From Pseudomonas putida (GTDB lineage Bacteria; Pseudomonadota; Gammaproteobacteria; Pseudomonadales; Pseudomonadaceae), in assembly GCF_025905425.1 (NCBI RefSeq), contig NZ_CP109603.1, forward strand, positions 2,826,001 through 2,890,000: a stretch of DNA of 64,000 bases. Reading direction: 5' to 3'. Under the pieces are notes generated by a model that saw only the letters and a list, made by a program, of their open reading frames with translations, had not been told where the DNA came from and did no database searches. Both the position numbers and the translations under genes were made by a program. Shown here one piece after another: positions 27,230 through 37,477 of this stretch (the first letter of the stretch is position 1; every line of letters starts with the position of its first letter).

Positions 27230-28501
27230 GTGACCACCTCATCGAACAACATGCACATCAACGAGTTCGGGCTTGATCAGGCGCACTGGCGCAACTGGGC
27301 GGGCAACCAGTCGTGTATCCGCGCGGCACGTGGCGCCCCCGCCAGCGAAGACGAACTGTGCTCGATGGTCAGCCAGGCAAGCGCCAATGGCATGAACGTG
27401 CGCGTGGCGGGTTCCGGGCATTCGTTCACCCCGGTGGCGCTAACCAACGGCCTGCACCTGTCGCTGGGCAACATGAGCGGTGTGCGCCACATTGACCACG
27501 AGAAAAAACGCGTCACCGCGGCGGCCGGGACAACCATCAACGCCTTCGGCAAGGCGCTGCGGGCTGCGGGGCTGTCCATGGTCAACCAAGGCGACATCGA
27601 CAGCCAGTCGATCGCCGGCGCCCTGACCACAGGCACCCACGGCACCGGCCTGACCCTGGGCAACCTGGCATCCTCCATCGTCGGCTTGAAGCTGGTTCAA
27701 CCCAACGGCGAGATCATCGTGGTGGACGAAAGCACCCCCGACCTGCTCCAGGCTGGCCGGGTTTCGCTGGGGGTGTTGGGTATCGTTTCAGAGCTGACCT
27801 TGCAGGTGACCGACAGCTTCAACCTGCACGAGCGTATCTGGCGAGAAGATTTCGAAAGCGTGATGGACAAGCACGACGAATTGGCGCGCACGCACCGCCA
27901 TTTCAGCTTCTTCTGGTGCCCCTACGAGCAGAGCCGGCACTGCTACTGCCTGCCCGACACGGCGGCGACCTCCACCAGCGGGCGTACCACCGACGTCTGT
28001 GAGGTGAAAGTCATGGACATCACCGACCGCCCGGCCTGGGAAAGTGAATTCGAGAAAGTGGCCTACAGTTCGGACGTCTACCCGATCGAGTACCTGCCCA
28101 ACTTCCATGAACTGGAATATGCCGTGCCCCTCAGGCACAGCAAGGAAGCCTTGCGGGCGGTACGCACGCTGATGCTCAAGGACTTCCCCGAGGCGATCTA
28201 CCCCATCGAGTACCGTTTCACTGCAGGCGACGGTGCCTGGATGAGCCCGTTCTTCGAGCAGGACAGTGTGACCATTTCGGTGTCCGGCCAGCCAGGCACC
28301 GACTACTGGGACTACTTGCGTGCGGTCGACCGGATCCTGCGTTCATACGGCGCCCGCCCACACTGGGGCAAGCTGCACTTCCTGACCGGCGACGACGTCA
28401 GCGCGATCTACCCCCGTGCCCAGGACTTTCGCAACCTGCGCCGCCAGCTCGACCCCCAGGGCGTGTACCTGAGCGAGCACCTGAGCCCGCTGTTCAAGTA
28501 G
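27230..28501 (+). CDS. FAD-linked oxidase of the aldonolactone/alditol oxidase group
   Basis: The product has 423 residues with a GTG start at 27230 preceded by CAGGAG. The VAO-type FAD domain has RVAGSGHSFTP, whose His is the usual covalent flavin site, and GDIDSQSIAGALTTGTHGTG. The C-terminal ALO domain ends with RPHWGKLHFL near residue 381 and LDPQGVYLSEHL. Relatives oxidise arabinono- or gulonolactones or alditols with oxygen. It forms an operon with the SDR upstream. The enzyme class is secure; the substrate is not. Confidence 0.83.
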   Translation: MTTSSNNMHINEFGLDQAHWRNWAGNQSCIRAARGAPASEDELCSMVSQASANGMNVRVAGSGHSFTPVALTNGLHLSLGNMSGVRHIDHEKKRVTAAAGTTINAFGKALRAAGLSMVNQGDIDSQSIAGALTTGTHGTGLTLGNLASSIVGLKLVQPNGEIIVVDESTPDLLQAGRVSLGVLGIVSELTLQVTDSFNLHERIWREDFESVMDKHDELARTHRHFSFFWCPYEQSRHCYCLPDTAATSTSGRTTDVCEVKVMDITDRPAWESEFEKVAYSSDVYPIEYLPNFHELEYAVPLRHSKEALRAVRTLMLKDFPEAIYPIEYRFTAGDGAWMSPFFEQDSVTISVSGQPGTDYWDYLRAVDRILRSYGARPHWGKLHFLTGDDVSAIYPRAQDFRNLRRQLDPQGVYLSEHLSPLFK

Positions 28502-28515
28502 GCCGCAATGGCTTG

Positions 28516-28550
28516 GCACAACGCCCGGGGCTGCACCTCGGGCGTTGTGC
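28516..28550. terminator. Convergent terminator hairpin
   Basis: An 11-bp perfect stem (GCACAACGCCC / GGGCGTTGTGC) with a 13-base loop lies between the oxidase gene and the convergent luxR-type gene, with a short TTT after it on the plus strand. Confidence 0.75.
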
Positions 28551-28561
28551 TTTCCAGGCGT

Positions 28562-29362
28562 TCAGGCTTTGGCCAGGTAGTCGATGAACAGGCGAAACAG
28601 TTCGGCGTTGGTAGAAATTTCAAGCCGCTGGTAGATGTTGTGCTTGTGCACCTTCACGGTGCCATCGGAGATGTTCAGTTGCCTAGCAATCGACGCATTG
28701 CTGTGGCCCTGCAACAGCAACTTGGCGATATAGCGCTGGGTTTCGGTCAACTGGCCCTGCAAGATCTCGACGAACGCATCCTCCAGCACCACGCGCTCGG
28801 CAGGCGCATCGCGCAGGTAATCGGCATACCTGCGCCGACAATGCTGGCCGAGTACCGAGGCCAGCACAGGCGCCATGGCCGCCAGCATCTGCATGTCTTC
28901 TTCGCTGAAGCTGCCACTGCTGAGGTTGCGCATCAGCGAGTAGACAATGGCCACCTGGGGGCGCAGTGCAATAATGAACCCCACCTCCTCCACCGAGGTG
29001 CCGTAGTCGGACGATACACAAGGGTGGATGTCCTTGGAGATGGAGAAGCCCGATGAGAAGAAGCTGTCGGGTGCCAGTTCGCTCATGCGCCAGAGCCCGG
29101 CCGGGTGCTCGTTGACGCAGGCGACATAGAACGGGTCGAGCAGATAACCGCCCCGCACGTAGGCGTTCAGGGTGCGCTCGGACACCGATTCGTTGTAGCC
29201 GTTATGCACCAGGATCGCTTTGTGGTTGAACTGGAACAGGTAACCACAGCTCATCTCGAACGCCAGTTTCTCTCGCAACAGCGCATCGATAGCAGTGCCC
29301 AAATGGTCCGTGCCGATTGCATCGATAACCGCCGCCAGCCTGTTCGCTTCTTCCAATGTCAT
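28562..29362 (-). CDS. LuxR-type regulator next to an oxidase/permease module
   Basis: The product has 266 residues. The C-terminal LuxR HTH is clear (LTETQRYIAKLLLQGHSNASIARQ then SDGTVKVHKHNIYQRLEI). The N-terminal half has no receiver Asp motif and shares the YLLDPF and LAPDSFF segments with the other LuxR gene of this window (45515-46345), so the two are paralogues. It is convergent with the oxidase gene and about 120 bases downstream of the EutH gene start of transcription unit in the same direction. It probably binds the TATACC-N4-GGTATA dyads. Confidence 0.82.
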   Translation of the reverse strand: MTLEEANRLAAVIDAIGTDHLGTAIDALLREKLAFEMSCGYLFQFNHKAILVHNGYNESVSERTLNAYVRGGYLLDPFYVACVNEHPAGLWRMSELAPDSFFSSGFSISKDIHPCVSSDYGTSVEEVGFIIALRPQVAIVYSLMRNLSSGSFSEEDMQMLAAMAPVLASVLGQHCRRRYADYLRDAPAERVVLEDAFVEILQGQLTETQRYIAKLLLQGHSNASIARQLNISDGTVKVHKHNIYQRLEISTNAELFRLFIDYLAKA

Positions 29363-29478
29363 TGTTCACCCCGCTCTTGTGCACAGAAGCCCCCGGGCAA
29401 CTTACCGCCCTGAACCGCAAAAAGCACAAAATCCGGGGCGCGTTGGGCGCTCCGGATCATGTCGATGACGTTTTTTGC

Positions 29479-30711
29479 TCAGGACGGCTCGGCTGCCACC
29501 TTGAAGGCGCTGGCGGCCTCGTCCTGGCGCCCCATCTCCACGGCCTTGGGCACGGCCAGCCAACTGGCCAGCAACATGGCCATCAGGCCACCGCTGAGCT
29601 TGCCGATGATCAGCGGCAAGATCAGCGAAGGCTGGAAGTTGGCGGAGAACGCCATGTGGTCGCCGAACGTGAAGGCGGCGCACACCGAGAAGGCGATCAC
29701 CAACACTTTGTCTTTGGGCGGCATCTCGCTGACCAGCCTGAACATGGCCAGTATGTTGGCCGAGGCGGCCAGCACCCCGGCCGCACCGACACCGGACATG
29801 CCAAAGCGCGAGGCGACCCGTTCGATGGGCTTGGCCAGAAAGCGTTTGAGCAGGTGCACCATCGGGAACGCCCCACACAGCATCAGGCCTATGTACCCGG
29901 CAATTTCCAGGGCACGGAACTGGTCGTCGGCATCGGCAATGATGGGGGCGAAGCCCCAGCTACCGAACACAGCGCTGAAGAAGCCGGTGAAGTACTGCAC
30001 GATGGAGGCCACCAGCACCAGCACCACCGCGATGTACATGAACTGGCCGAGCTTGAGGAACAGGTACACCATCAGCGTCGGGAAGTAGCGCAGCGCCGCC
30101 GCCAGCGCGATGCAGAACAGAATCAACGGCATCAGGTTGCGCACCAGCATTGGCCAGGTGAAGTGCAGCGCCTGGGTGGCCGCGCCGGTGGTTGCGATGT
30201 CCGGGCGAACCTCCAGGCCGAGCAGTTGCATGGTCATGGCGATCACCATGATGCTGACGGGAATGGTCAACAGGCCGGCCATGATCCCTAAGGCCATGTA
30301 CTTGTGGTCGACCTTGCGCAGCATGGCCAGCCCCACCGGGATCACGAAAATGATCGTTGCGCCGCACTGAAAGCCGGTAATCAGCCCCAGGATCCAGCCC
30401 TCGGGGCTTTGCGCCAGGGCCTTGGCCAACTGATAGCCGCCCATGTCCGAGGCGATGAAGATCGGCCCGGCAATCCCGGGGTCGGCGCCGATAGCCTGGA
30501 ACAGCGGTGCGATGAACTGGCCGATGCCCGCGGAAATGTACGGGATCGCCGCCATGATGCCGGCCACAGGGATGAAGATGGGGCCGATGCTGTGCAGGCC
30601 GGCGATGAACTCCTGGCCCAGCTCACCTTCCGGGTTGTAGATGGATGCCACAGCACCCAGTACCGCGCACACCATGATGACGTAGATGACATAGGTGCCG
30701 ATGCTTTCCAT
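29479..30711 (-). CDS. eutH: EutH-family permease
   Basis: The product has 410 residues from the ATG at 30711 (MESIGTYV) with GAGG 6 bases upstream; the frame extends to 30762 without support. About ten membrane segments are expected. The SIGPIFIPVAGIMAAIPYIS, IASDMGGYQLAKAL, and SAAFTFGDHMAF-like (CAAFTFGDH) motifs match EutH ethanolamine permeases. No ammonia-lyase or microcompartment genes are nearby; instead an oxidase, an SDR and a LuxR regulator are. It may import ethanolamine or a related amino alcohol for those enzymes, which is inference. Confidence 0.8.
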   Translation of the reverse strand: MESIGTYVIYVIMVCAVLGAVASIYNPEGELGQEFIAGLHSIGPIFIPVAGIMAAIPYISAGIGQFIAPLFQAIGADPGIAGPIFIASDMGGYQLAKALAQSPEGWILGLITGFQCGATIIFVIPVGLAMLRKVDHKYMALGIMAGLLTIPVSIMVIAMTMQLLGLEVRPDIATTGAATQALHFTWPMLVRNLMPLILFCIALAAALRYFPTLMVYLFLKLGQFMYIAVVLVLVASIVQYFTGFFSAVFGSWGFAPIIADADDQFRALEIAGYIGLMLCGAFPMVHLLKRFLAKPIERVASRFGMSGVGAAGVLAASANILAMFRLVSEMPPKDKVLVIAFSVCAAFTFGDHMAFSANFQPSLILPLIIGKLSGGLMAMLLASWLAVPKAVEMGRQDEAASAFKVAAEPS

Positions 30712-30843
30712 TTGCCGCCTCATTCTTGTAAGAGTTGTTGGATTGGCAGGACTGAATGTCACGGGGGGCGTAGTTGTTTTTATCGCGCATGCAAGGTGCG
30801 CCCCGTCGAGGGTTAAGCTATTCGGCAGGCAGCGGGCTGTCCA

Positions 30844-30859
30844 TATACCGGGAGGTATA
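30844..30859. promoter_or_regulatory. Dyad TATACC-N4-GGTATA upstream of the EutH gene
   Basis: A perfect palindrome, TATACC GGGA GGTATA, lies about 130 bases before the EutH start, with the same arms and spacing as 26300-26315. The rest of 30712-31034 shows no gene. Confidence 0.6.
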
Positions 30860-31034
30860 GGCAGTGCTCAGACCCGGATGCTGCGATCACCTTGGACAGC
30901 GGTTAAGAAGTACCACTGACAATCATTTGCCCATCGCTCGTGCTGCACGAGCGCCTGAGGCGAAATCTGCTTTCGATAGCTGGGATGCGATGACGCGTAC
31001 GCCAATTTTTCAGGGGTACATCTGAAGCACCACA

Positions 31035-31223
31035 CTAGGCTCTGTACGAAAAGTTTTGTGGGAGCGGGCTTGCCCCGCGATGGCGTGCGAAGCGCTCCTG
31101 TACCTGATATCAAATAGTGTCAAAGACGCCGCGAATTCAGGCTTTGCTGCCGCGTTGCGGCAGATCGCGGGGCAAGCCCGCTCCCACGGCGATGGATGAC
31201 CATACTTTTCGTACAAAATCTAG
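31035..31223. mobile_element. MITE-like 189-bp element with 24-bp terminal inverted repeats and an internal REP pair
   Basis: The ends 31035-31058 and 31200-31223 are inverted repeats sharing CTAG and a perfect 12-bp block TGTACGAAAAGT (31043-31054; complement 31204-31215). Inside are two inverted REP units, 31057-31084 and 31164-31187, each with GTGGGAGCGGGCTTGCCCC. There is no transposase. The right end coincides with the natural stop codon of the adjacent minus-strand gene. Confidence 0.65.
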
Positions 31224-32013
31224 GCATGTTGTTGTTGACTGATGTCCTCCCAGATGGCATCGAACATGACACATCGCTTGGTAATTGCCTCATACCCCGT
31301 TTGAACTGCAAGGCCTTTGCTTCAGGACTTTGTCGCGTCAAACGCTCTAGAATCCCCAGCAGGGTAATGGCATGTCCCTCGTCCTCTTCGATGTGCAAGC
31401 GAAAAAACTCCAGACCGTCTTCATGCACCTCTAATTTTTTCAGCGCCGTGAGGATCGGTTTATAAATCAGCGGCACGATAGCTTCAGCGCCAAGACAAAG
31501 CGCCGCGATGCCCACAACCGGATTTTCGTTGCGGCAAAACGTCATGATGGATTGGGTAAAATCCAGCGTCTGGGGCAAAGGTGGTGCCGCCATGGCATAA
31601 GTGCCCAGTCGCTGGAGCGAGCGTTGAAACAAGTCTGCATGCGTCACCTTGTCGTCATCATCAACACCCATTTCCTCCTGCATATTCTCCATTAACAGCT
31701 GGATGTCGCCGAGGGATTCAAGGTGGCTGATGATCGAGCAGATGAAGCGGGTAAAATTTCGAGCGTAGTAGTGGTGCTGCACCAAAAAGAAACGCATGGC
31801 ACTCAAGGAAACACGGCCATCGGCCATTGCGATCAATAGCTCATGGCTCACCAATCTGTTCAATGCTTCGGCGCTCAGCCATTTGTCCCATACCGAGCCG
31901 CCGGTGATCGCCTGAATGATCTCGACTCTATTTCCGCTCTGCGGTTCAATGCCATTCTTCAATTTTGAGTTCCCTTCATCTTGCTTAAGAATTAAACGAG
32001 CAAAACCATCCAT
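31120..32013 (-). CDS. Haem-oxygenase-like diiron enzyme, C-terminus frameshifted
   Basis: As sequenced the frame gives 297 residues. The fold is the TenA/haem-oxygenase-like group of iron-containing redox enzymes: MRFFLVQHHYYARNFTRFI, NMQEEMG followed by THADLF, and HIEEDEGHAITLLGILE supply the usual Glu/His/Asp ligands. After residue ~232 the frame becomes implausible. Adding one A in the AAA at 31316-31318 restores a family-like tail ending AITKRCVMFDAIWEDI and a TAG at 31220-31222. The last ~35 sequenced residues instead come from the MITE. It is the last gene of the MccB-like cluster, 31 bases after the exporter. Members of this fold cleave or oxidise amino-acid-like substrates; it may modify the peptide. 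Confidence 0.75.
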   Translation of the reverse strand: MDGFARLILKQDEGNSKLKNGIEPQSGNRVEIIQAITGGSVWDKWLSAEALNRLVSHELLIAMADGRVSLSAMRFFLVQHHYYARNFTRFICSIISHLESLGDIQLLMENMQEEMGVDDDDKVTHADLFQRSLQRLGTYAMAAPPLPQTLDFTQSIMTFCRNENPVVGIAALCLGAEAIVPLIYKPILTALKKLEVHEDGLEFFRLHIEEDEGHAITLLGILERLTRQSPEAKALQFKRGMRQLPSDVSCSMPSGRTSVNNNMPRFCTKSMVIHRRGSGLAPRSAATRQQSLNSRRL

Positions 32014-32044
32014 CCCAAAGGATGCGCTGCAAGCCGCTCACTAT

Positions 32045-33238
32045 TTAGCGTTTACCACGACGAAGAACATAACGATCCGATTGGGTTAGCCAGTAAGCGC
32101 ACAAAGAGGCGAAGACAATGCACATCCCCCCTGATGTGAGAATCAGACCACTGCTGGAAAAATGGAGTAGTAACCATCCACTGAGCACGCTCGCGGGTGG
32201 AATTGCGAGATAGGCAATAAGCCGTGTAACACCGACCGTTCGCCCCAGAATCGCCTGCGGCACCAACTGCTGGCGATACGTGAAAAACGCAATGACCACA
32301 ACCGATTGACAGCAGGTAGACAGCGCCCAGAGCGCCGACAGTGTCCAAGGTTCGCTGGCCAGCGCTGCGCTCAACGTGAAAAGCCCTGCCAGCAAGCAAC
32401 TGCGTCGGATGAGAACGCCAGTCGCATAGCGTTTTACCAAACTTGCGCCTGCCACTGATCCGGCGACCGCACCTGCGCCAACAAGCCCGTAGTAATAGCC
32501 CACGTCACTCAACGGTACCGCGAGGAGCGAGGTGTAAACGTAGATAAGGCTGGCACCGACCAGGGCAAAACCGAAGTTACAGAAAAAGAACAGCAAAACG
32601 AACGAACACAGCTCTCGATGGCGAATGACATAAAGCAGACCTGCTTTGATTTCAGTGAAGACATGCGTCGTAGCGGGATGAGGTTTATCCTGCTCTTTCA
32701 GCCAATAACAAAGCGGCAAGGAAAGCGTAAACCCCACGATACCGCCTAGTAGAATCTGCTCTTTAGAGCTGAAGACCAACAGGGCTGAAACACCCATCGG
32801 CGCAACGATGCGAATTGTGTTGTCACTGGCATTGACGATCGCATTAAAGCGATAGAGTTTCTCTTTCTCGATCAGCGCAGGTGCGATGCTCTGAAATACC
32901 GGATGATGGGTTGCGCCGACGCTCGCCAACATAAAACTCAGCAATAACAACAGGGGGCTCAACGTGGCGCCGCCCCCTGTGCCTACGACGGCATAAATCA
33001 GGCAGCCGATGACGATATTGGTCAGATCACCGCCAATCAAGAGTCTTCGCTTGCTATAGCGATCGCTCCATACACCGGCAAACGGCGTAACCAGTATGTA
33101 GGGTGCCATTGCTGCGAAAAATGCTAGCGAGGTCCAGACTGGGGAGCCTGTCTGCTCATAGATGTAAAGCGGAATGAGAAATGCAATAGCCCATGAGCAG
33201 ACGGACGTGATGGCATAGGACGCCAGCAGCTTGAACAT
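32045..33238 (-). CDS. MFS exporter, MccC-like by position
   Basis: The product has 397 residues with twelve predicted membrane segments; it starts MFKLLASYAITSVCSWAIAF and has the FAGVWSDRYSKRRLLIGGD motif between helices 2 and 3, typical of drug- and peptide-type MFS efflux proteins. Its ATG follows directly on the TAG of the adenylyltransferase gene (no gap), a sign of tight coupling. By analogy with mccC and paaC it probably exports the modified peptide and gives self-protection. Codon use and base composition are A/T-richer than in flanking genes. Confidence 0.8.
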   Translation of the reverse strand: MFKLLASYAITSVCSWAIAFLIPLYIYEQTGSPVWTSLAFFAAMAPYILVTPFAGVWSDRYSKRRLLIGGDLTNIVIGCLIYAVVGTGGGATLSPLLLLLSFMLASVGATHHPVFQSIAPALIEKEKLYRFNAIVNASDNTIRIVAPMGVSALLVFSSKEQILLGGIVGFTLSLPLCYWLKEQDKPHPATTHVFTEIKAGLLYVIRHRELCSFVLLFFFCNFGFALVGASLIYVYTSLLAVPLSDVGYYYGLVGAGAVAGSVAGASLVKRYATGVLIRRSCLLAGLFTLSAALASEPWTLSALWALSTCCQSVVVIAFFTYRQQLVPQAILGRTVGVTRLIAYLAIPPASVLSGWLLLHFSSSGLILTSGGMCIVFASLCAYWLTQSDRYVLRRGKR

Positions 33239-34372
33239 CTAGACTGTCTCCGCCTGCACGGTCGACTGCTGCGACCTGGCAAGATGGCCACACACCGTAC
33301 AGGTCGGGTTCAACTGCCAGACTTCGGCAATGCCCACATCCAGATCATCGAACGTGAATTCCTTGAGCTTGTTGGTTAACTGGGGTGGCTGGCAACCGGT
33401 GAGGATTTTGACCGTTTCGCTCACCATCATGCCCGCGGTGACAGCCACGAGGGTGACCAAGGCCGGGCCGGGATGCTGGTAGGTTATGTCGTGCTGCTTG
33501 GCCATGTTCGAGATGCTGTTCACCAGACTGCTTTTATTGCGTGCCGAAGTAAGCCAACAAGCACCGCAGCCAGAAATGCCGGGCACCACAGAGTAGAAAA
33601 CCGAACGCCGGACATCCAGCCCGCCTGAGATAAAGGGCACGCCTTGTTCAACGCACGCTTCATTCAGCCAGTCGGCCATGTAGTTCGCGGGTTTATCGGC
33701 GACGCAAATAACAATATCGTGGCCCCTCACGACGTTGGCCACATCACGTGTAGATTCGAGTCGACGTTCGTGGGTGGTGATATCGAGATGGCTATTGAAT
33801 TCGAGCAGCCGACGCTTGGCAGTGACGACCTTTGACATCCCTATGTCAGTCTCCTTATAGAGAATTTGCCGATTGAGATTGCTCAACTCAATCGTGTCAA
33901 AATCAAGGATGGTCAGTTGATGCACGCCCAGCGCCACCAGGTCGAACAGGATATGGGTGCCAAGACCACCACAGCCGAGTACGCAAACCTTGGCCGCGCG
34001 CAATTTCTCCTGAGGCATAAACTTGTTCTCAGTCACAGCCGACATCGACCCGAAAAAGTCGATATTGCGGGAGAACCGCATTCGATCATGATCTGAGAGT
34101 GAAGTAATTTCAAACGCATCCGGGCTCTCGACCAGTCGATACTTGATCAAGTCTTGCACCACCGCTCGAATATCGCCCTGACTGACTGCGGGAAAACGAT
34201 CAGCCACTTGGGTAATCAAGGCCTCAACGGATACACTGCCATTCAATGCAGTGGCCAATTCCCAGATAGCACCATGGGGGTCGGGAATTTTCGCGTATTG
34301 CCCATTGAACCTCAGAACAACCTGACCTTCGAGCTTGAACGGAATAATTGTCGGCTTCAGGCAAAGTTTCAT
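33239..34372 (-). CDS. MccB-like ThiF-family adenylyltransferase with fused peptide-binding domain
   Basis: The product has 377 residues. Residues ~15-85 resemble a PqqD-type leader-recognition domain (GAIWELATALNG, then DIRAVVQDLIKYRLVE). Residues ~105-360 are an E1/ThiF domain: RFSRNIDFF linker as in MccB, VCVLGCGGLGTH nucleotide loop, ILDFDTIELSNLNRQIL, and a zinc site from CGAC and CTVC. MccB (microcin C) and PaaA (pantocin) share this fused layout and activate a short ribosomal peptide with ATP. A tiny ORF and hairpin precede it, and the exporter and diiron enzyme follow. GAGGCAGGAA is the RBS. Confidence 0.85.
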   Translation of the reverse strand: MKLCLKPTIIPFKLEGQVVLRFNGQYAKIPDPHGAIWELATALNGSVSVEALITQVADRFPAVSQGDIRAVVQDLIKYRLVESPDAFEITSLSDHDRMRFSRNIDFFGSMSAVTENKFMPQEKLRAAKVCVLGCGGLGTHILFDLVALGVHQLTILDFDTIELSNLNRQILYKETDIGMSKVVTAKRRLLEFNSHLDITTHERRLESTRDVANVVRGHDIVICVADKPANYMADWLNEACVEQGVPFISGGLDVRRSVFYSVVPGISGCGACWLTSARNKSSLVNSISNMAKQHDITYQHPGPALVTLVAVTAGMMVSETVKILTGCQPPQLTNKLKEFTFDDLDVGIAEVWQLNPTCTVCGHLARSQQSTVQAETV

Positions 34373-34409
34373 GTTCCTGCCTCACACTCATCAAATAAAC
34401 ATTGTGGGC

Positions 34410-34431
34410 GCCAGGACCCGAAGGCCCTGGC
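34410..34431 (-). promoter_or_regulatory. Hairpin between precursor ORF and adenylyltransferase gene
   Basis: On the minus strand GCCAGGGCC pairs with GGTCCTGGC (9 bp, one G-U) around a stable TTCG tetraloop. There is no T-run. In microcin C operons a hairpin at this position limits read-through and stabilises the precursor mRNA; the same role is possible here. Confidence 0.6.
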
Positions 34432-34445
34432 TTTCGTTGGTCAAC

Positions 34446-34493
34446 TCAGCCGATCTGAGAGTCGCCAGCAGAAGAGGCTTTTTCGAAAGTCAT
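34446..34493 (-). CDS. Candidate peptide precursor, 15 residues
   Basis: An ATG at 34493 with a strong CGAGGAG 7 bases upstream opens the peptide MTFEKASSAGDSQIG, ending at TGA. It is the only ORF with a good RBS between the A/T-rich upstream region and the MccB-like gene, which is where mccA lies in microcin C clusters. Classical MccA ends in Asn; this ends in Gly. A single-base loss in the A5 run (T5 at 34479-34483) would instead give a 33-residue peptide that starts MTFEK, contains AELTNESQGL and ends RVLAPTMFI at 34391. Which reading is real cannot be decided here. Confidence 0.5.
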   Translation of the reverse strand: MTFEKASSAGDSQIG

Positions 34494-34840
34494 AATGATT
34501 CTCCTCGAACAGTTAATAGGCCAGTGATCAAAGTCCTTTCGCTCACCGGATGAGAGTGCACACACAAAAAAACTAGAGTGAATCTCCAGACTCTGCGCGC
34601 CCATCTTGTTTCTGCATGTTACTCAAGACAATCACCCGTAACTTTGCCACCACCAACATGCAAAACTGCCTACAAAATTCAAGGAAAGATACGTAGGAAA
34701 ACTCCTATTTATACAGCAGTAATAACAAAGCCATTAATCGCCTTAACACTACAGAACTGCACGCTTTTCTTTGCAGAAGAGGATCGATTATTCGATTGAG
34801 CATTATTGCGACACCCACAAAGAGAGCCCTGAGCTTCGCA
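34494..34840 (-). other. A/T-rich promoter-like region of the peptide cluster
   Basis: This gap is visibly richer in A/T than the neighbouring chromosome and lies upstream of the precursor ORF. No convincing gene is seen. A clear sigma-70 pair could not be fixed by eye, although TGTATAAATA on the minus strand near 34707-34716 is a possible -10 region. Confidence 0.35.
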
Positions 34841-36238
34841 CTAGGCCTGACGACGGCGATAGGCCACAAGCAGAAAGACAAACCACAACGGCATCACGCA
34901 CAACGCCATCCGCGTGTCCGGCTCAAGGGCCAGCAGCACCAGCACGAAGCCGAGGAACCCCAGCGTCGTGATGGCCATGGGCACCCCGCCCGGCACCTTG
35001 AACACCGACGCCTGGTGCGCGGCGGGGTTGTGCTTGCGGTAGGCAAGGTACGCGGCAAGGATCATCGACCAGGTAAAGATCACCAGGATCGCCGAGATGG
35101 TCGAGATCAGCGTGAACACCGTCATCACCTCAGGGATGATGAACAGCAGGGCCAACCCGGTCAGCATGCACACCCCGGAGAACAGCAGGCTGTGCACCGG
35201 CACGCTGAGTACCGAGAGCTTGGCAAAGATGGCGGGTGCGTTACGCCGCTCGGCGAGGCCGAAGAGCATCCGGCACCCCGAGTAAACACCACTGTTGGCA
35301 GAGGACGCCGCCGATGTCAGCACCACGAAATTGAGCATGCCGGCAGCGGCGGGAAAGCCGGCAAGCAGGAACAGTTCGACGAATGGGCTGCGGTTGGCCG
35401 GCACTTGTGCCCACGAAACCACGCTGATGATGCACACCAGCGCCAGGATGTAGAACAGCAGGATGCGCAAAGGAATGGTGTTGATGGCCTTGGGCAGCGA
35501 GCGGTGCGGGTTTTTCGCCTCGGCTGCCGTGGTACCGATCAGCTCGGTACCAGCGAAGGAAAACACGGCGATCTGGAACCCGGCAAAAAAGCCGCTGATG
35601 CCATGGGGCAGCACCGCGCCTGGCGCCACCACGTTGGAGAGCGAGGCGACCACACCATTGGGCGACACATAGGACGTGGCGATCATCACTGCCGCAGTGA
35701 TGATCAGCATGACGATGGCCACGATCTTGATGATCCCGAACCAGAACTCCACTTCGCCGAAAATCCGCACCGCCAGCATGTTCAGCCCGAGCAGCACGAA
35801 CAACGTGAAGAACGCCGGTATCCAGGCGGGCACATCGGCATACCAGTACTGGAAGAACCCCGCCACGACCACCACGTCACCGACCACCGCCACGCTCCAG
35901 CTCAGCCAATAGGACCAGCTCAGCACGAAGCCGGCGCGCGGGCCCAGGTAATGGGCGACGATGTCGGCGAAGGATTTGAAGCGCAGGTCAGACAGCAGCA
36001 ACTCCCCCATGGCACGCATGACGAAAAACACGAAGAAACCGAGGATCGCGTAGACCAGCAAAATGGAGGTGCCGGACAACGCAATGACCTTGCCCGAGCC
36101 CATGAACAGGCCGGTGCCGATGGCGCCACCGATTGAGATCAGCTGTATATGCCGGTTTTCCAGCGTGCGTTTCAGGTGCCCGTCTTGGGCTAAATCTGTG
36201 GGATTGCTTTGATCAAGGCTTGCGGGCATGTCTTGCAT
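34841..36238 (-). CDS. APC-family amino-acid permease, CycA-like
   Basis: The product has 465 residues from the ATG at 36238 with AAAGAGG upstream. It has twelve predicted membrane helices. The start ENRHIQLISIGGAIGTGLFMGSGK and the FFVMRAMGELLL segment are close to CycA (D-serine/D-alanine/glycine permease). It follows the acetylpolyamine amidohydrolase gene by 84 bases in the same direction, so the pair may act in uptake and use of an acetylated amine or amino acid. Substrate is not certain. Confidence 0.82.
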   Translation of the reverse strand: MQDMPASLDQSNPTDLAQDGHLKRTLENRHIQLISIGGAIGTGLFMGSGKVIALSGTSILLVYAILGFFVFFVMRAMGELLLSDLRFKSFADIVAHYLGPRAGFVLSWSYWLSWSVAVVGDVVVVAGFFQYWYADVPAWIPAFFTLFVLLGLNMLAVRIFGEVEFWFGIIKIVAIVMLIITAAVMIATSYVSPNGVVASLSNVVAPGAVLPHGISGFFAGFQIAVFSFAGTELIGTTAAEAKNPHRSLPKAINTIPLRILLFYILALVCIISVVSWAQVPANRSPFVELFLLAGFPAAAGMLNFVVLTSAASSANSGVYSGCRMLFGLAERRNAPAIFAKLSVLSVPVHSLLFSGVCMLTGLALLFIIPEVMTVFTLISTISAILVIFTWSMILAAYLAYRKHNPAAHQASVFKVPGGVPMAITTLGFLGFVLVLLALEPDTRMALCVMPLWFVFLLVAYRRRQA

Positions 36239-36322
36239 GAGCGACCTCTTTTTATTGTTGGAATCATGGCCATCGAACAAGGCCCGCACAGGGCCTTGTC
36301 ACGGTGCGTTCAAGGCGTGCGA

Positions 36323-37372
36323 TCAAGCCGCGCCTTCGAAGCCTTGCAAGGTGTTGACGGCATTGATGCCGATTTCGTCGACCATGTAGCCGCCCTCCAT
36401 CACGAACAGCGTCGGGATGCCTGCGCGGGCAATCTCGGCGCCCAAGCGCAGGAAGTCTTCGCTGGTGAGCTTGAAGTGACTGATCGGGTCGTCCTCGAAG
36501 GTATCGACGCCGAGCGACACGATGAGAAAGTCCGGCGTGTGCGCGACAACGCGCTTGAGCGCGTCCTGCAAGGCCTGTTGGTACTGCGCCCAGACGGTGC
36601 CCTTGCCCAGCGGGTAGTTGGCCGTGAAGCCCTCGCCCGCCCCCGCCCCCTGCTCGTGGGCATAGCCGGAGAAGTACGGGTAGGACACATGCGGGTCACC
36701 GTGGATCGAGGCGAAAAACACGTCGGGGCGGTCGTAGAAGATGTTCTGCGTGCCGTTGCCGTGGTGAAAATCTACGTCCAGCACGGCCACGCGCCGTGCG
36801 CCCTGGCTCAGGCAGCGTTCGGCGGCAATCGCGGCATTGTTGAGGTAGCAGTAACCGCCCATGTACTCGCGGGCCGCATGGTGCCCAGGTGGGCGGCACA
36901 AGGCGAAGGCGCTGGATGCACCGTCGATGACGCGCTGCATGCCGGTCAAGGCCACGTTGGCGCTGCTGCGCACGGCTTCCCAGGTGCCGCCGGTGATCGG
37001 CGCGCCGGCGTCCATGGCGTAGAAGCCCAGCTTGCCATCGATGAAGCCCGGCTCACGGTCAATGGCCAGGTCGCGCACCGGCCATACCAGCGGCAGCGCA
37101 TCATGGGTCTTGCCGGTGGCGGTCCATTCTGCCCAGGCCTTTTCCAGAAAGCTTACATAGCGCTCGCTGTGCGCCGCGACATAGCAGGCACGCTCGAACG
37201 CCTGCTCGGCGATGACATCGCCCAGGCCCGTGGATTGCACCCGCGCCAGCACGGTGTCGGCACGCTGGGGGTTCTCGAAGGACGGCGTGATGGCCCCGTC
37301 CTTGAGCTCGGAGCCATGGTGCAAGCGGTGTTTGTTGCTAAAGACTGTCAGCACGCGAATGTCCTTTTTCAA
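36323..37372 (-). CDS. Acetylpolyamine amidohydrolase (class II HDAC-like)
   Basis: The product has 349 residues. HDAC-fold active-site motifs are LCRPPGHHA, YCYLNNAAIAAE, DVDFHHGNGTQ (metal and His residues) and MEGGYMVDEIG near the C-terminus. Pseudomonas enzymes of this length (AphA/AphB type) deacetylate acetylputrescine and acetylcadaverine. It is divergent from an Lrp-type regulator and precedes an amino-acid permease, fitting a polyamine/amino-acid catabolic unit. Confidence 0.87.
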   Translation of the reverse strand: MKKDIRVLTVFSNKHRLHHGSELKDGAITPSFENPQRADTVLARVQSTGLGDVIAEQAFERACYVAAHSERYVSFLEKAWAEWTATGKTHDALPLVWPVRDLAIDREPGFIDGKLGFYAMDAGAPITGGTWEAVRSSANVALTGMQRVIDGASSAFALCRPPGHHAAREYMGGYCYLNNAAIAAERCLSQGARRVAVLDVDFHHGNGTQNIFYDRPDVFFASIHGDPHVSYPYFSGYAHEQGAGAGEGFTANYPLGKGTVWAQYQQALQDALKRVVAHTPDFLIVSLGVDTFEDDPISHFKLTSEDFLRLGAEIARAGIPTLFVMEGGYMVDEIGINAVNTLQGFEGAA

Positions 37373-37477
37373 GGTGTTATCGGATAACCAATTTTCGCGA
37401 CAGACCGGTGAAAATGCTTTGCTTTATGCTCAGCCAAACCGGATGCTTCAGCAAAACATCCACCCGGTAGCGCCCTA

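What the first reader, a model, noticed from the sequence alone, without database searches (positions are those of the whole stretch)
31220..34493. Possible uncharacterised microcin C/pantocin-like peptide cluster with a haem-oxygenase-like diiron enzyme
In order on the minus strand there is a tiny ORF with a strong RBS, a TTCG hairpin, a ThiF-family enzyme with a fused leader-binding-like domain and MccB-like linker and zinc motifs, an MFS exporter whose ATG abuts the previous stop codon, and a haem-oxygenase-like diiron enzyme. Microcin C (mccA-hairpin-mccB-mccC) and pantocin (paaP-paaA-paaB-paaC) have this logic, but I know of no described member that includes a diiron enzyme of this fold. 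The island is A/T-richer than its surroundings, consistent with recent transfer.
Basis: partly seen in the sequence, partly recalled or inferred. Interest (0 to 1): 0.9.

Follow-up and report, generated by a model that had tools for sequence, protein, structure and literature searches.

The report
Glycine-ended peptide made by microcin-type enzyme
A small gene cluster in what is probably a Pseudomonas encodes a 15-residue peptide ending in glycine next to a microcin-C-type activating enzyme, an exporter and an iron oxidase; distant bacteria carry the same arrangement, which looks like an undescribed class of ribosomal peptide product, perhaps an antibiotic or signal.

Summary
On the minus strand lie a tiny ORF (MTFEKASSAGDSQIG), a hairpin, a ThiF-family enzyme with an N-terminal leader-binding-like domain, an MFS exporter and a haem-oxygenase-like (HO-like) diiron protein. 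The tiny ORF is real: two related loci encode the same 15 residues with synonymous differences only. ThiF relatives in Pantoea, Salmonella (plasmid), Nonomuraea, Macrococcus and an unnamed gammaproteobacterium share the order: ORF of 15-20 codons, hairpin, ThiF 61-79 nt on, MFS. In 8 of 9 loci read the peptide ends in Gly, in one in Ala. Microcin C precursors are reported to end always in Asn, so this is a sister class, not microcin C; precursor motifs also exclude pantocin and enterofaecin. The HO-like gene is an accessory (3 of 3 Pseudomonas loci; an HO-cupin near one other). Other loci carry a nitric-oxide-synthase domain or an ABM monooxygenase, and two an AlkA-like DNA glycosylase, a hint at a DNA-damaging product. 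In this genome the HO-like gene's C-terminus is out of frame. Best reading: a RiPP whose C-terminal Gly is adenylated by the ThiF enzyme, then exported. New variant of a known kind; chemistry untested.

The parts
34501..34506 (-). Shine-Dalgarno-like GAGGAG of the tiny ORF
   Evidence: read directly; GAGGA in both near relatives
34446..34493 (-). precursor peptide ORF MTFEKASSAGDSQIG, 15 aa, C-terminal Gly
   Evidence: same 15 residues in L005 and L006, synonymous differences only
34410..34431 (-). hairpin (9 bp stem, TTCG loop) between peptide and ThiF gene; probable partial terminator as reported for mccA-mccB (inferred)
   Evidence: one stem position reads G-C, G-U and A-U in window, L005 and L006 (letters)
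33239..34372 (-). RRE-ThiF adenylyltransferase, 377 aa
   Evidence: (MccB best PDB sequence match, 115.6 bits)
32045..33238 (-). MFS exporter, 397 aa
31120..32013 (-). HO-like diiron oxidase ORF; matches the L006 relative in frame at about 31926-31294; a piece at about 31321-31229 matches the relative's C-terminus in another frame; the ORF itself runs on into unrelated sequence

Best explanation
The island encodes a ribosomally made, post-translationally modified peptide (RiPP) of a class sister to microcin C. The tiny ORF is the precursor; its N-terminal part is held by the N-terminal winged-helix domain of the ThiF enzyme. The catalytic domain adenylates the C-terminal glycine carboxylate with ATP, and the acyl-adenylate is captured by a nucleophile (unknown: an amine, a side chain or a backbone atom) to give a C-terminally modified peptide. 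The hairpin stops part of the transcripts after the peptide gene, so that precursor is in excess over enzyme, and the MFS protein exports the product. In the Pseudomonas members the HO-like diiron enzyme oxidises the peptide or the appended group, for instance by dehydrogenation as reported for VarO. Shown here: gene order, conservation of the peptide and its end, family and active-site residues. Inferred: adenylation of Gly, capture, termination, export, role of the oxidase, antibiotic or signal function.
For: Tiny ORF conserved with synonymous change only among the Pseudomonas loci. An ORF of 15-20 codons ending in Gly (8 of 9 family loci: window, L005, L006, L008, L009, L010, L011, L016) or Ala (1 of 9: L015) before the ThiF gene. 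Stop-to-ThiF gap 61-79 nt in the Gly loci, 68 in the microcin C control (L008 by eye). Hairpin in 8 of 8 Gly loci and in the control. MFS gene next after ThiF in 8 of 8 Gly loci (four of the distant ones Pfam-scanned; in Nonomuraea about 320 nt lie between the ORFs as listed). PDB best sequence match MccB, ahead of MoeB and PaaA. R168, K181 and D226 stand where the review puts the ATP/Mg residues of EnfB (PMC12250964). Eight family rows incl. the Ala row form one set at 97/97.
Confidence: 0.72

Rival explanations
1. A true microcin C: nucleotide joined to the peptide C-terminus by an N-P bond, Trojan-horse inhibitor of an aminoacyl-tRNA synthetase.
For: Same gene order, hairpin and spacing as the E. 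coli mcc locus; MccB is the best PDB sequence match.
Against: All microcin C precursors in two published surveys end in Asn, which is needed for the N-P bond (PMC6495379 passages; PMC9239234 passages); here Gly or Ala in 9 of 9 loci, and Gly has no side-chain amide. No mccD/E/F-like gene among the 6 window neighbours scanned.
Confidence: 0.1
2. Carrier-peptide pathway: the ThiF enzyme loads an amino acid or amine onto the peptide C-terminus, the HO-like enzyme oxidises it there, and a small molecule is released; the peptide is a scaffold, not the product.
For: The L006 HO-like enzyme (about 70% identical to the window's in-frame part) is 68% identical to an HO-cupin protein in another ThiF-containing cluster of Pseudomonas G055 and 52% to one in a like cluster of a Pantoea agglomerans plasmid. 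In the FVG cluster an HO-type protein (gvgC) and two small ORFs are required (PMC8067088 passages).
Against: The tiny peptide, ThiF and exporter recur without any HO gene noticed in the Pantoea, Salmonella, Nonomuraea and Macrococcus loci; no ThiF gene is listed for gvg.
Confidence: 0.12
3. ThiS/MoaD-like sulfur relay: the Gly-ended peptide is turned into a C-terminal thiocarboxylate.
For: C-terminal Gly is the residue that ThiF adenylates in ThiS (PMC12250964 passage).
Against: No sulfurtransferase was noticed among the annotated or scanned neighbours (not searched for systematically); exporter and RRE-like domain fit a RiPP; C240 near the active site is Val in Macrococcus.
Confidence: 0.05
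4. Phage-defence or ubiquitin-like conjugation module.
For: PADLOC E1-E2 models hit the ThiF core (best E 4e-15).
Against: The best hit covers 117 of 489 model positions; the MFS and HO-like proteins hit nothing; no E2-like gene was noticed.
Confidence: 0.01

Closest known systems
Microcin C (mccA-mccB-mccC), E. coli
   Same: tiny SD-led ORF, hairpin, RRE-ThiF enzyme, MFS exporter, like spacing (control locus L025)
   Different: precursor ends in Asn there, Gly or Ala here; no mccD/E/F-like gene among the 6 scanned window neighbours
Pantocin A (paaPABC)
   Same: RRE-ThiF enzyme (PDB 5ff5, 83 bits), small precursor ORF (30 aa, passage)
   Different: PaaA joins two neighbouring Glu residues (recalled); one Glu here; weaker match than MccB
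Enterofaecin (EnfB) and IndF indolylamide
   Same: C-terminal carboxylate of the precursor is adenylated, then captured
   Different: precursor cores WWIVI and NWYFI; a Niallia locus of the WWIII type (L012) lies outside the Gly set
GRC-type RiPP (GrcB)
   Same: RRE-ThiF adenylation
   Different: Glu-Cys thiolactone; no Cys in this peptide
Thiovarsolin (VarO)
   Same: HO-like protein and MFS exporter in a RiPP cluster; VarO is said to dehydrogenate the product (passages)
   Different: YcaO-TfuA pathway, no RRE-ThiF enzyme in the gene list
FVG (gvg) cluster
   Same: HO-type protein and required small ORFs
   Different: no ThiF or MFS in the listed genes; carbamoyl- and formyltransferases there
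HO-like diiron oxidases (CADD, BesC, FlcD, HrmI, UndA) and PqqC
   Same: fold, E/H/E/H/D/H pattern
   Different: 13-24% identity in the rows listed; substrate unknown

Membership tests
Microcin C | precursor with C-terminal Asn | tested here: not met
   Gly in 8 of 9 loci, Ala in 1; rule from PMC6495379 and PMC9239234 passages
Microcin C | MccB-type RRE + ThiF enzyme | tested here: met
   sequence; the RRE part rests on a low-confidence model and a tied structural ranking
Microcin C | hairpin between precursor and enzyme gene | tested here: met
   termination itself not tested
Microcin C | MFS exporter gene downstream | tested here: met
Microcin C | nucleotide joined through an N-P bond | not testable with these tools
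   needs mass spectrometry
Pantocin A | precursor with Glu-Glu core | tested here: not met
   MTFEKASSAGDSQIG has one Glu; the Glu-Glu rule is recalled
Enterofaecin / IndF type | aromatic, Ile-ended core | tested here: not met
RRE-ThiF RiPP pathways in general | short precursor gene beside an RRE-ThiF enzyme with intact ATP site, and a transporter | tested here: met
HO-like diiron oxidase | three-His/three-carboxylate ligand set in the haem-oxygenase fold | tested here: met
   E97, H108, E160, H190, D194, H197 (L006 numbering) invariant in the 7 rows of A4; the window has the same motifs before its frame break; fold on the L006 protein; ligand roles recalled from CADD
HO-like diiron oxidase | complete open frame in this genome | tested here: not met
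   C-terminal piece in another frame

The most novel reading that the evidence does not exclude
A new class of Gly-ended RiPP in which the end group is N-oxidised (nitroso-, diazo- or hydroxylamine-like) and damages DNA after uptake, with alkylation-repair enzymes as self-immunity. Support: different oxidising enzymes stand behind the exporter in different lineages (HO-like diiron in Pseudomonas; HO-cupin near the G595 locus; nitric-oxide-synthase domain in Nonomuraea; ABM monooxygenase in Salmonella), and AlkA-like glycosylases stand directly behind the exporter in Salmonella and G595, the latter with an O6-methylguanine-transferase-like gene. Recalled, not from a call: HO-like diiron enzymes can make N-nitroso groups (SznF), and N-nitroso-glycine peptides carboxymethylate DNA. 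Lowered from 0.12, which show a plainer role (dehydrogenation) for an HO-like protein in a RiPP.
Probability: 0.1. Interest if true: 0.88.

Novelty: new variant of a known kind. Interest (0 to 1): 0.62.

Why it matters
Five reaction types by RRE-ThiF enzymes are described in the papers seen (N-P bond, pantocin bicycle, thiolactone, imide/amide, indolylamide). The group here predicts a further substrate end, C-terminal glycine, the residue that ThiF activates in ThiS. It was found in three phyla (Pseudomonadota, Actinomycetota, Bacillota), on plasmids and chromosomes, and its core is three genes, so it is directly testable in vitro with one enzyme and a synthetic 15-mer. If the DNA-repair neighbours are immunity genes it would be a genotoxic Trojan-horse peptide.

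Tried and rejected
Microcin C proper: rejected on the C-terminus. Pantocin and enterofaecin: rejected on precursor motifs. Defence module: weak partial hits only. Viral contigs: 100 stretches matched a pattern, none a relative. Phages: 2 records with partial ThiF hits, none covering 80% of the query. E. coli genomes: the Salmonella locus DNA found nothing (DNA search, so distant relatives would be missed). Empty site: the amino-acid permease and histone-deacetylase flank is syntenic in G009, but the other side was not found within the stretch held, so no clean empty site was shown. What is shown is that only the cluster itself matches between the window stretch 28500-37400 and L006/L007, so it sits at another place there.

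Other ThiF loci read to set limits: L012 (precursor ends Ile, WWIII), L019 (Arg), L022 (Thr), L025 (Asn, E. coli microcin C), L020 (Tyr-Asn-ended repeats on the other strand, by eye); L021, L024 and L026 gave no convincing precursor; L013 and L023 were not put through. The Pantoea L008 ORF did not pass the SD filter (its SD reads GGGGG) and was read by eye. G055 also reaches E 5e-54 with the family model but has another context and was dropped from the family counts. Of the 235 plasmid records, 20 were listed and 7 were opened from that list.

Absence in print of a Gly-ended ThiF peptide rests on searches in open-licence PMC only; supplements could not be read, and the RRE-ThiF network of PMC12150305 (27,400 proteins) may hold this group as an unlabelled node.
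Full report
What is there. On the minus strand, in order: SD GAGGAG; tiny ORF 34493-34446, MTFEKASSAGDSQIG; hairpin 34431-34410; ThiF-family ORF 34372-33239; MFS ORF 33238-32045, whose ATG abuts the ThiF stop; HO-like ORF 32013-31120. The flanks are an amino-acid permease and a histone-deacetylase-family gene on one side and an EutH-like gene and a LuxR-type regulator on the other. Island G+C is 0.528, window 0.626; the lowest of 303 sliding windows of that size is 0.518.

Is the tiny ORF real. Both encode the same 15 residues. Window and L006 differ at 3 of 48 positions of the ORF, all synonymous; ThiF differs in 186 of 377 codons, 57 of them replacements, and the sequence before and after the ORF matches at only 25/37 and 41/71 positions. 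The stem after it is kept although letters change: one pair reads G-C, G-U and A-U in window, L005 and L006.

Distant relatives. A tblastn of the ThiF protein against plasmids gave 235 records, 37 covering at least 80%; 20 were listed. Four of those opened belong to the group: Pantoea piersonii (L008), Salmonella enterica (L009; one of four records with the identical protein), Nonomuraea gerenzanensis (L010) and Macrococcus bovicus (L011). Genome samples added G595 (L016/L018) and G326 (L015/L017). Peptides: MKFTKFNASNATLAAVG, MKFTKHATSNAKLALVG, MIKKSTKRYSVAGGTQKG, MSLKMETIKNKAALLGGVPG, MKIKLHKQMASNAGLVGVG and, in G326, MSFEIKEIDISIAGTAQVA. So 8 of 9 loci (3 Pseudomonas, 5 others) end in Gly and 1 in Ala. 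The stop-to-ThiF gap is 61-79 nt in the Gly loci, 68 in the E. coli microcin C control and 24 in G326 (L008 by eye). A hairpin lies in that gap in 8 of 8 Gly loci and in the control, with shuffle z-scores from -1.89 (window) to -7.95; G326 has none (z -0.36). An MFS gene is next after ThiF in 8 of 8 Gly loci (those of L005, L006 and L009 go by likeness to the window's protein or by annotation); G326 has MATE, solute-binding and O-methyltransferase genes nearby instead.

Rarity. Genus samples: 2 of 298 genomes at E <= 1e-40 with the protein; 3 of 398 at 1e-50 with the alignment, one of them (G055) in a different context. Class 3 of 369, phylum 1 of 299, order 1 of 381 at 1e-60. All counts include the window's own genome, and the samples overlap. 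In L006 and L007 the cluster has DUF2170 and DUF3182 genes as neighbours, in the window permease genes; elsewhere it is on plasmids. This looks like a sparse, mobile element.

The ThiF enzyme. The best PDB sequence match is MccB (115.6 bits, residues 96-363), then MoeB (84) and PaaA (83). R168, K181, D226 and four cysteines are conserved in the E. coli MccB and WWIII-type rows too; they are common to the superfamily (the MoeB-like row has them) and show an intact ATP site, not the product. The review assigns Arg, Lys and Asp of EnfB to ATP and Mg (PMC12250964). The N-terminal 80 residues are modelled as three strands and three helices, the RRE/PqqD pattern, but overall confidence is low (pLDDT 58, 4 sequences). 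MccB chains head the structural comparison and align from residue 6 or 7 over 274-299 residues, but with large rmsd (8.5-9.8) and Z tied with MoeB, ThiF and E1 chains. In a tree of 20 ThiF proteins the Pseudomonas, Pantoea, Salmonella, G595, Nonomuraea and G326 rows form one set (97/97) without MccB and the other RiPP-type rows; Macrococcus is unresolved, several outer branches are long, and the Gly label needs 3 changes (at least 2), so a single origin is not shown.

The diiron enzyme. PF14518; fold model of the L006 protein pLDDT 86, nearest CADD, PqqC, UndA, FlcD, BesC, HrmI; six putative ligand residues invariant in the 7 rows aligned. It follows the MFS in 3 of 3 Pseudomonas loci; an HO-cupin fusion lies convergently about 2.1 kb beyond the MFS end in G595; none was noticed in the other loci. 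Relatives sit in other clusters: a 68% identical HO-cupin in G055 near an aminotransferase-type fusion, ThiF, TauD-like, GNAT, two ATP-grasp-like, MFS and amidase ORFs (these names go by likeness to the annotated Pantoea plasmid L049), and behind aminotransferase-like ORFs in G195, G056 and G094 (by eye). 7 of 199 genus genomes, own included, have a relative at 1e-12. In the window the protein matches the relative in one frame to about residue 223, and the relative's last 31 residues match in another frame: a sequencing error or a recent break. Intact copies exist in L006 and L007. A precedent for an HO-like protein in a RiPP pathway is VarO of thiovarsolin, which stands with an MFS gene and is reported to dehydrogenate the product (PMC6511847 and PMC8120280 passages).

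Other neighbours. Salmonella: AlkA-like protein 23 nt behind the MFS (NF007641 68 bits, below its cut-off of 229; PF06029 just below cut-off) and an ABM monooxygenase. G595: HhH-GPD glycosylase directly behind the MFS (PF00730 E 1e-11; NF007641 40 bits), then a protein with the O6-methylguanine-transferase DNA-binding domain and a PEP-mutase-like one. Nonomuraea: a nitric-oxide-synthase oxygenase domain behind the MFS (PF02898 E 2e-134). AlkA-like genes as such are common on plasmids (56 records). Glycosylases as self-resistance to genotoxic products are known from other glycosylase families (PMC9040887 passages). This is 2 of 9 loci, and DNA-repair genes can be neighbours by chance, so I hold it as the bold reading only.

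Comparison with the known. Papers seen: PMC12250964 (abstract, a passage of section 3, section 4 part 1 of 2, sections 8, 13, 14, 17, 20), PMC12150305 (parts 1-2 of 3), and passages of PMC9239234, PMC6495379, PMC8064604, PMC8067088, PMC7744662, PMC11350110, PMC9040887, PMC8719888, PMC7136475, PMC7470986, PMC6511847, PMC8120280. Microcin C precursors all end in Asn and the mccA-mccB hairpin is a terminator that yields excess precursor mRNA. The architecture here works like microcin C; membership fails at the C-terminus. None of the passages seen describes a Gly-ended ThiF peptide or an HO-like enzyme in a ThiF RiPP cluster.

Verdict. A real, conserved RiPP-type cluster of a ThiF class that I did not find described, with a Gly-ended precursor; the diiron enzyme is a lineage-specific accessory gene, out of frame at its end in this genome. 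New variant of a known kind, interest 0.62 (0.64).

Noticed in passing
window 31229-31321(-): The C-terminal end of the HO-like gene lies in another frame than the rest; sequencing error or real break not decided.
   Followed up: partly
window 31060-31190: A palindromic, REP-like GC-rich inverted repeat lies between the HO-like gene and the EutH-like gene (by eye).
   Followed up: no
L050 1274-13340; L049 34675-36675 and 1-8944: A second, larger ThiF cluster (HO-cupin or HO-aminotransferase fusion, ThiF, TauD, GNAT, ATP-grasp, PurD, MFS, amidase) shared by Pseudomonas G055 and a Pantoea agglomerans plasmid; product unknown.
   Followed up: partly
L009 8318-9211; L018 6420-7319 and 6019-6450: AlkA-like glycosylases behind the exporter of two Gly-peptide clusters, one with an O6-methylguanine-transferase-like gene.
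   Followed up: partly
L010 8917-9972: Nitric-oxide-synthase oxygenase domain gene behind the exporter in Nonomuraea.
   Followed up: partly
L008 5059-5748; L009 5066-5740: Divergent ArsR-like winged-helix regulators of 224-229 aa upstream of the peptide gene in Pantoea and Salmonella; none noticed at that place in the Pseudomonas loci.
   Followed up: no
L020 3530-3830; L022 3600-3880: Repeated copies of short precursor-like ORFs: Tyr-Asn-ended ones opposite the Exiguobacterium ThiF gene (by eye) and three tandem copies before the Priestia one.
   Followed up: no
NZ_CP045959.1 148569-148956: Another Salmonella plasmid holds a partial, 78% identical piece of the AlkA-like gene in three pieces, perhaps a decayed cluster.
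   Followed up: no
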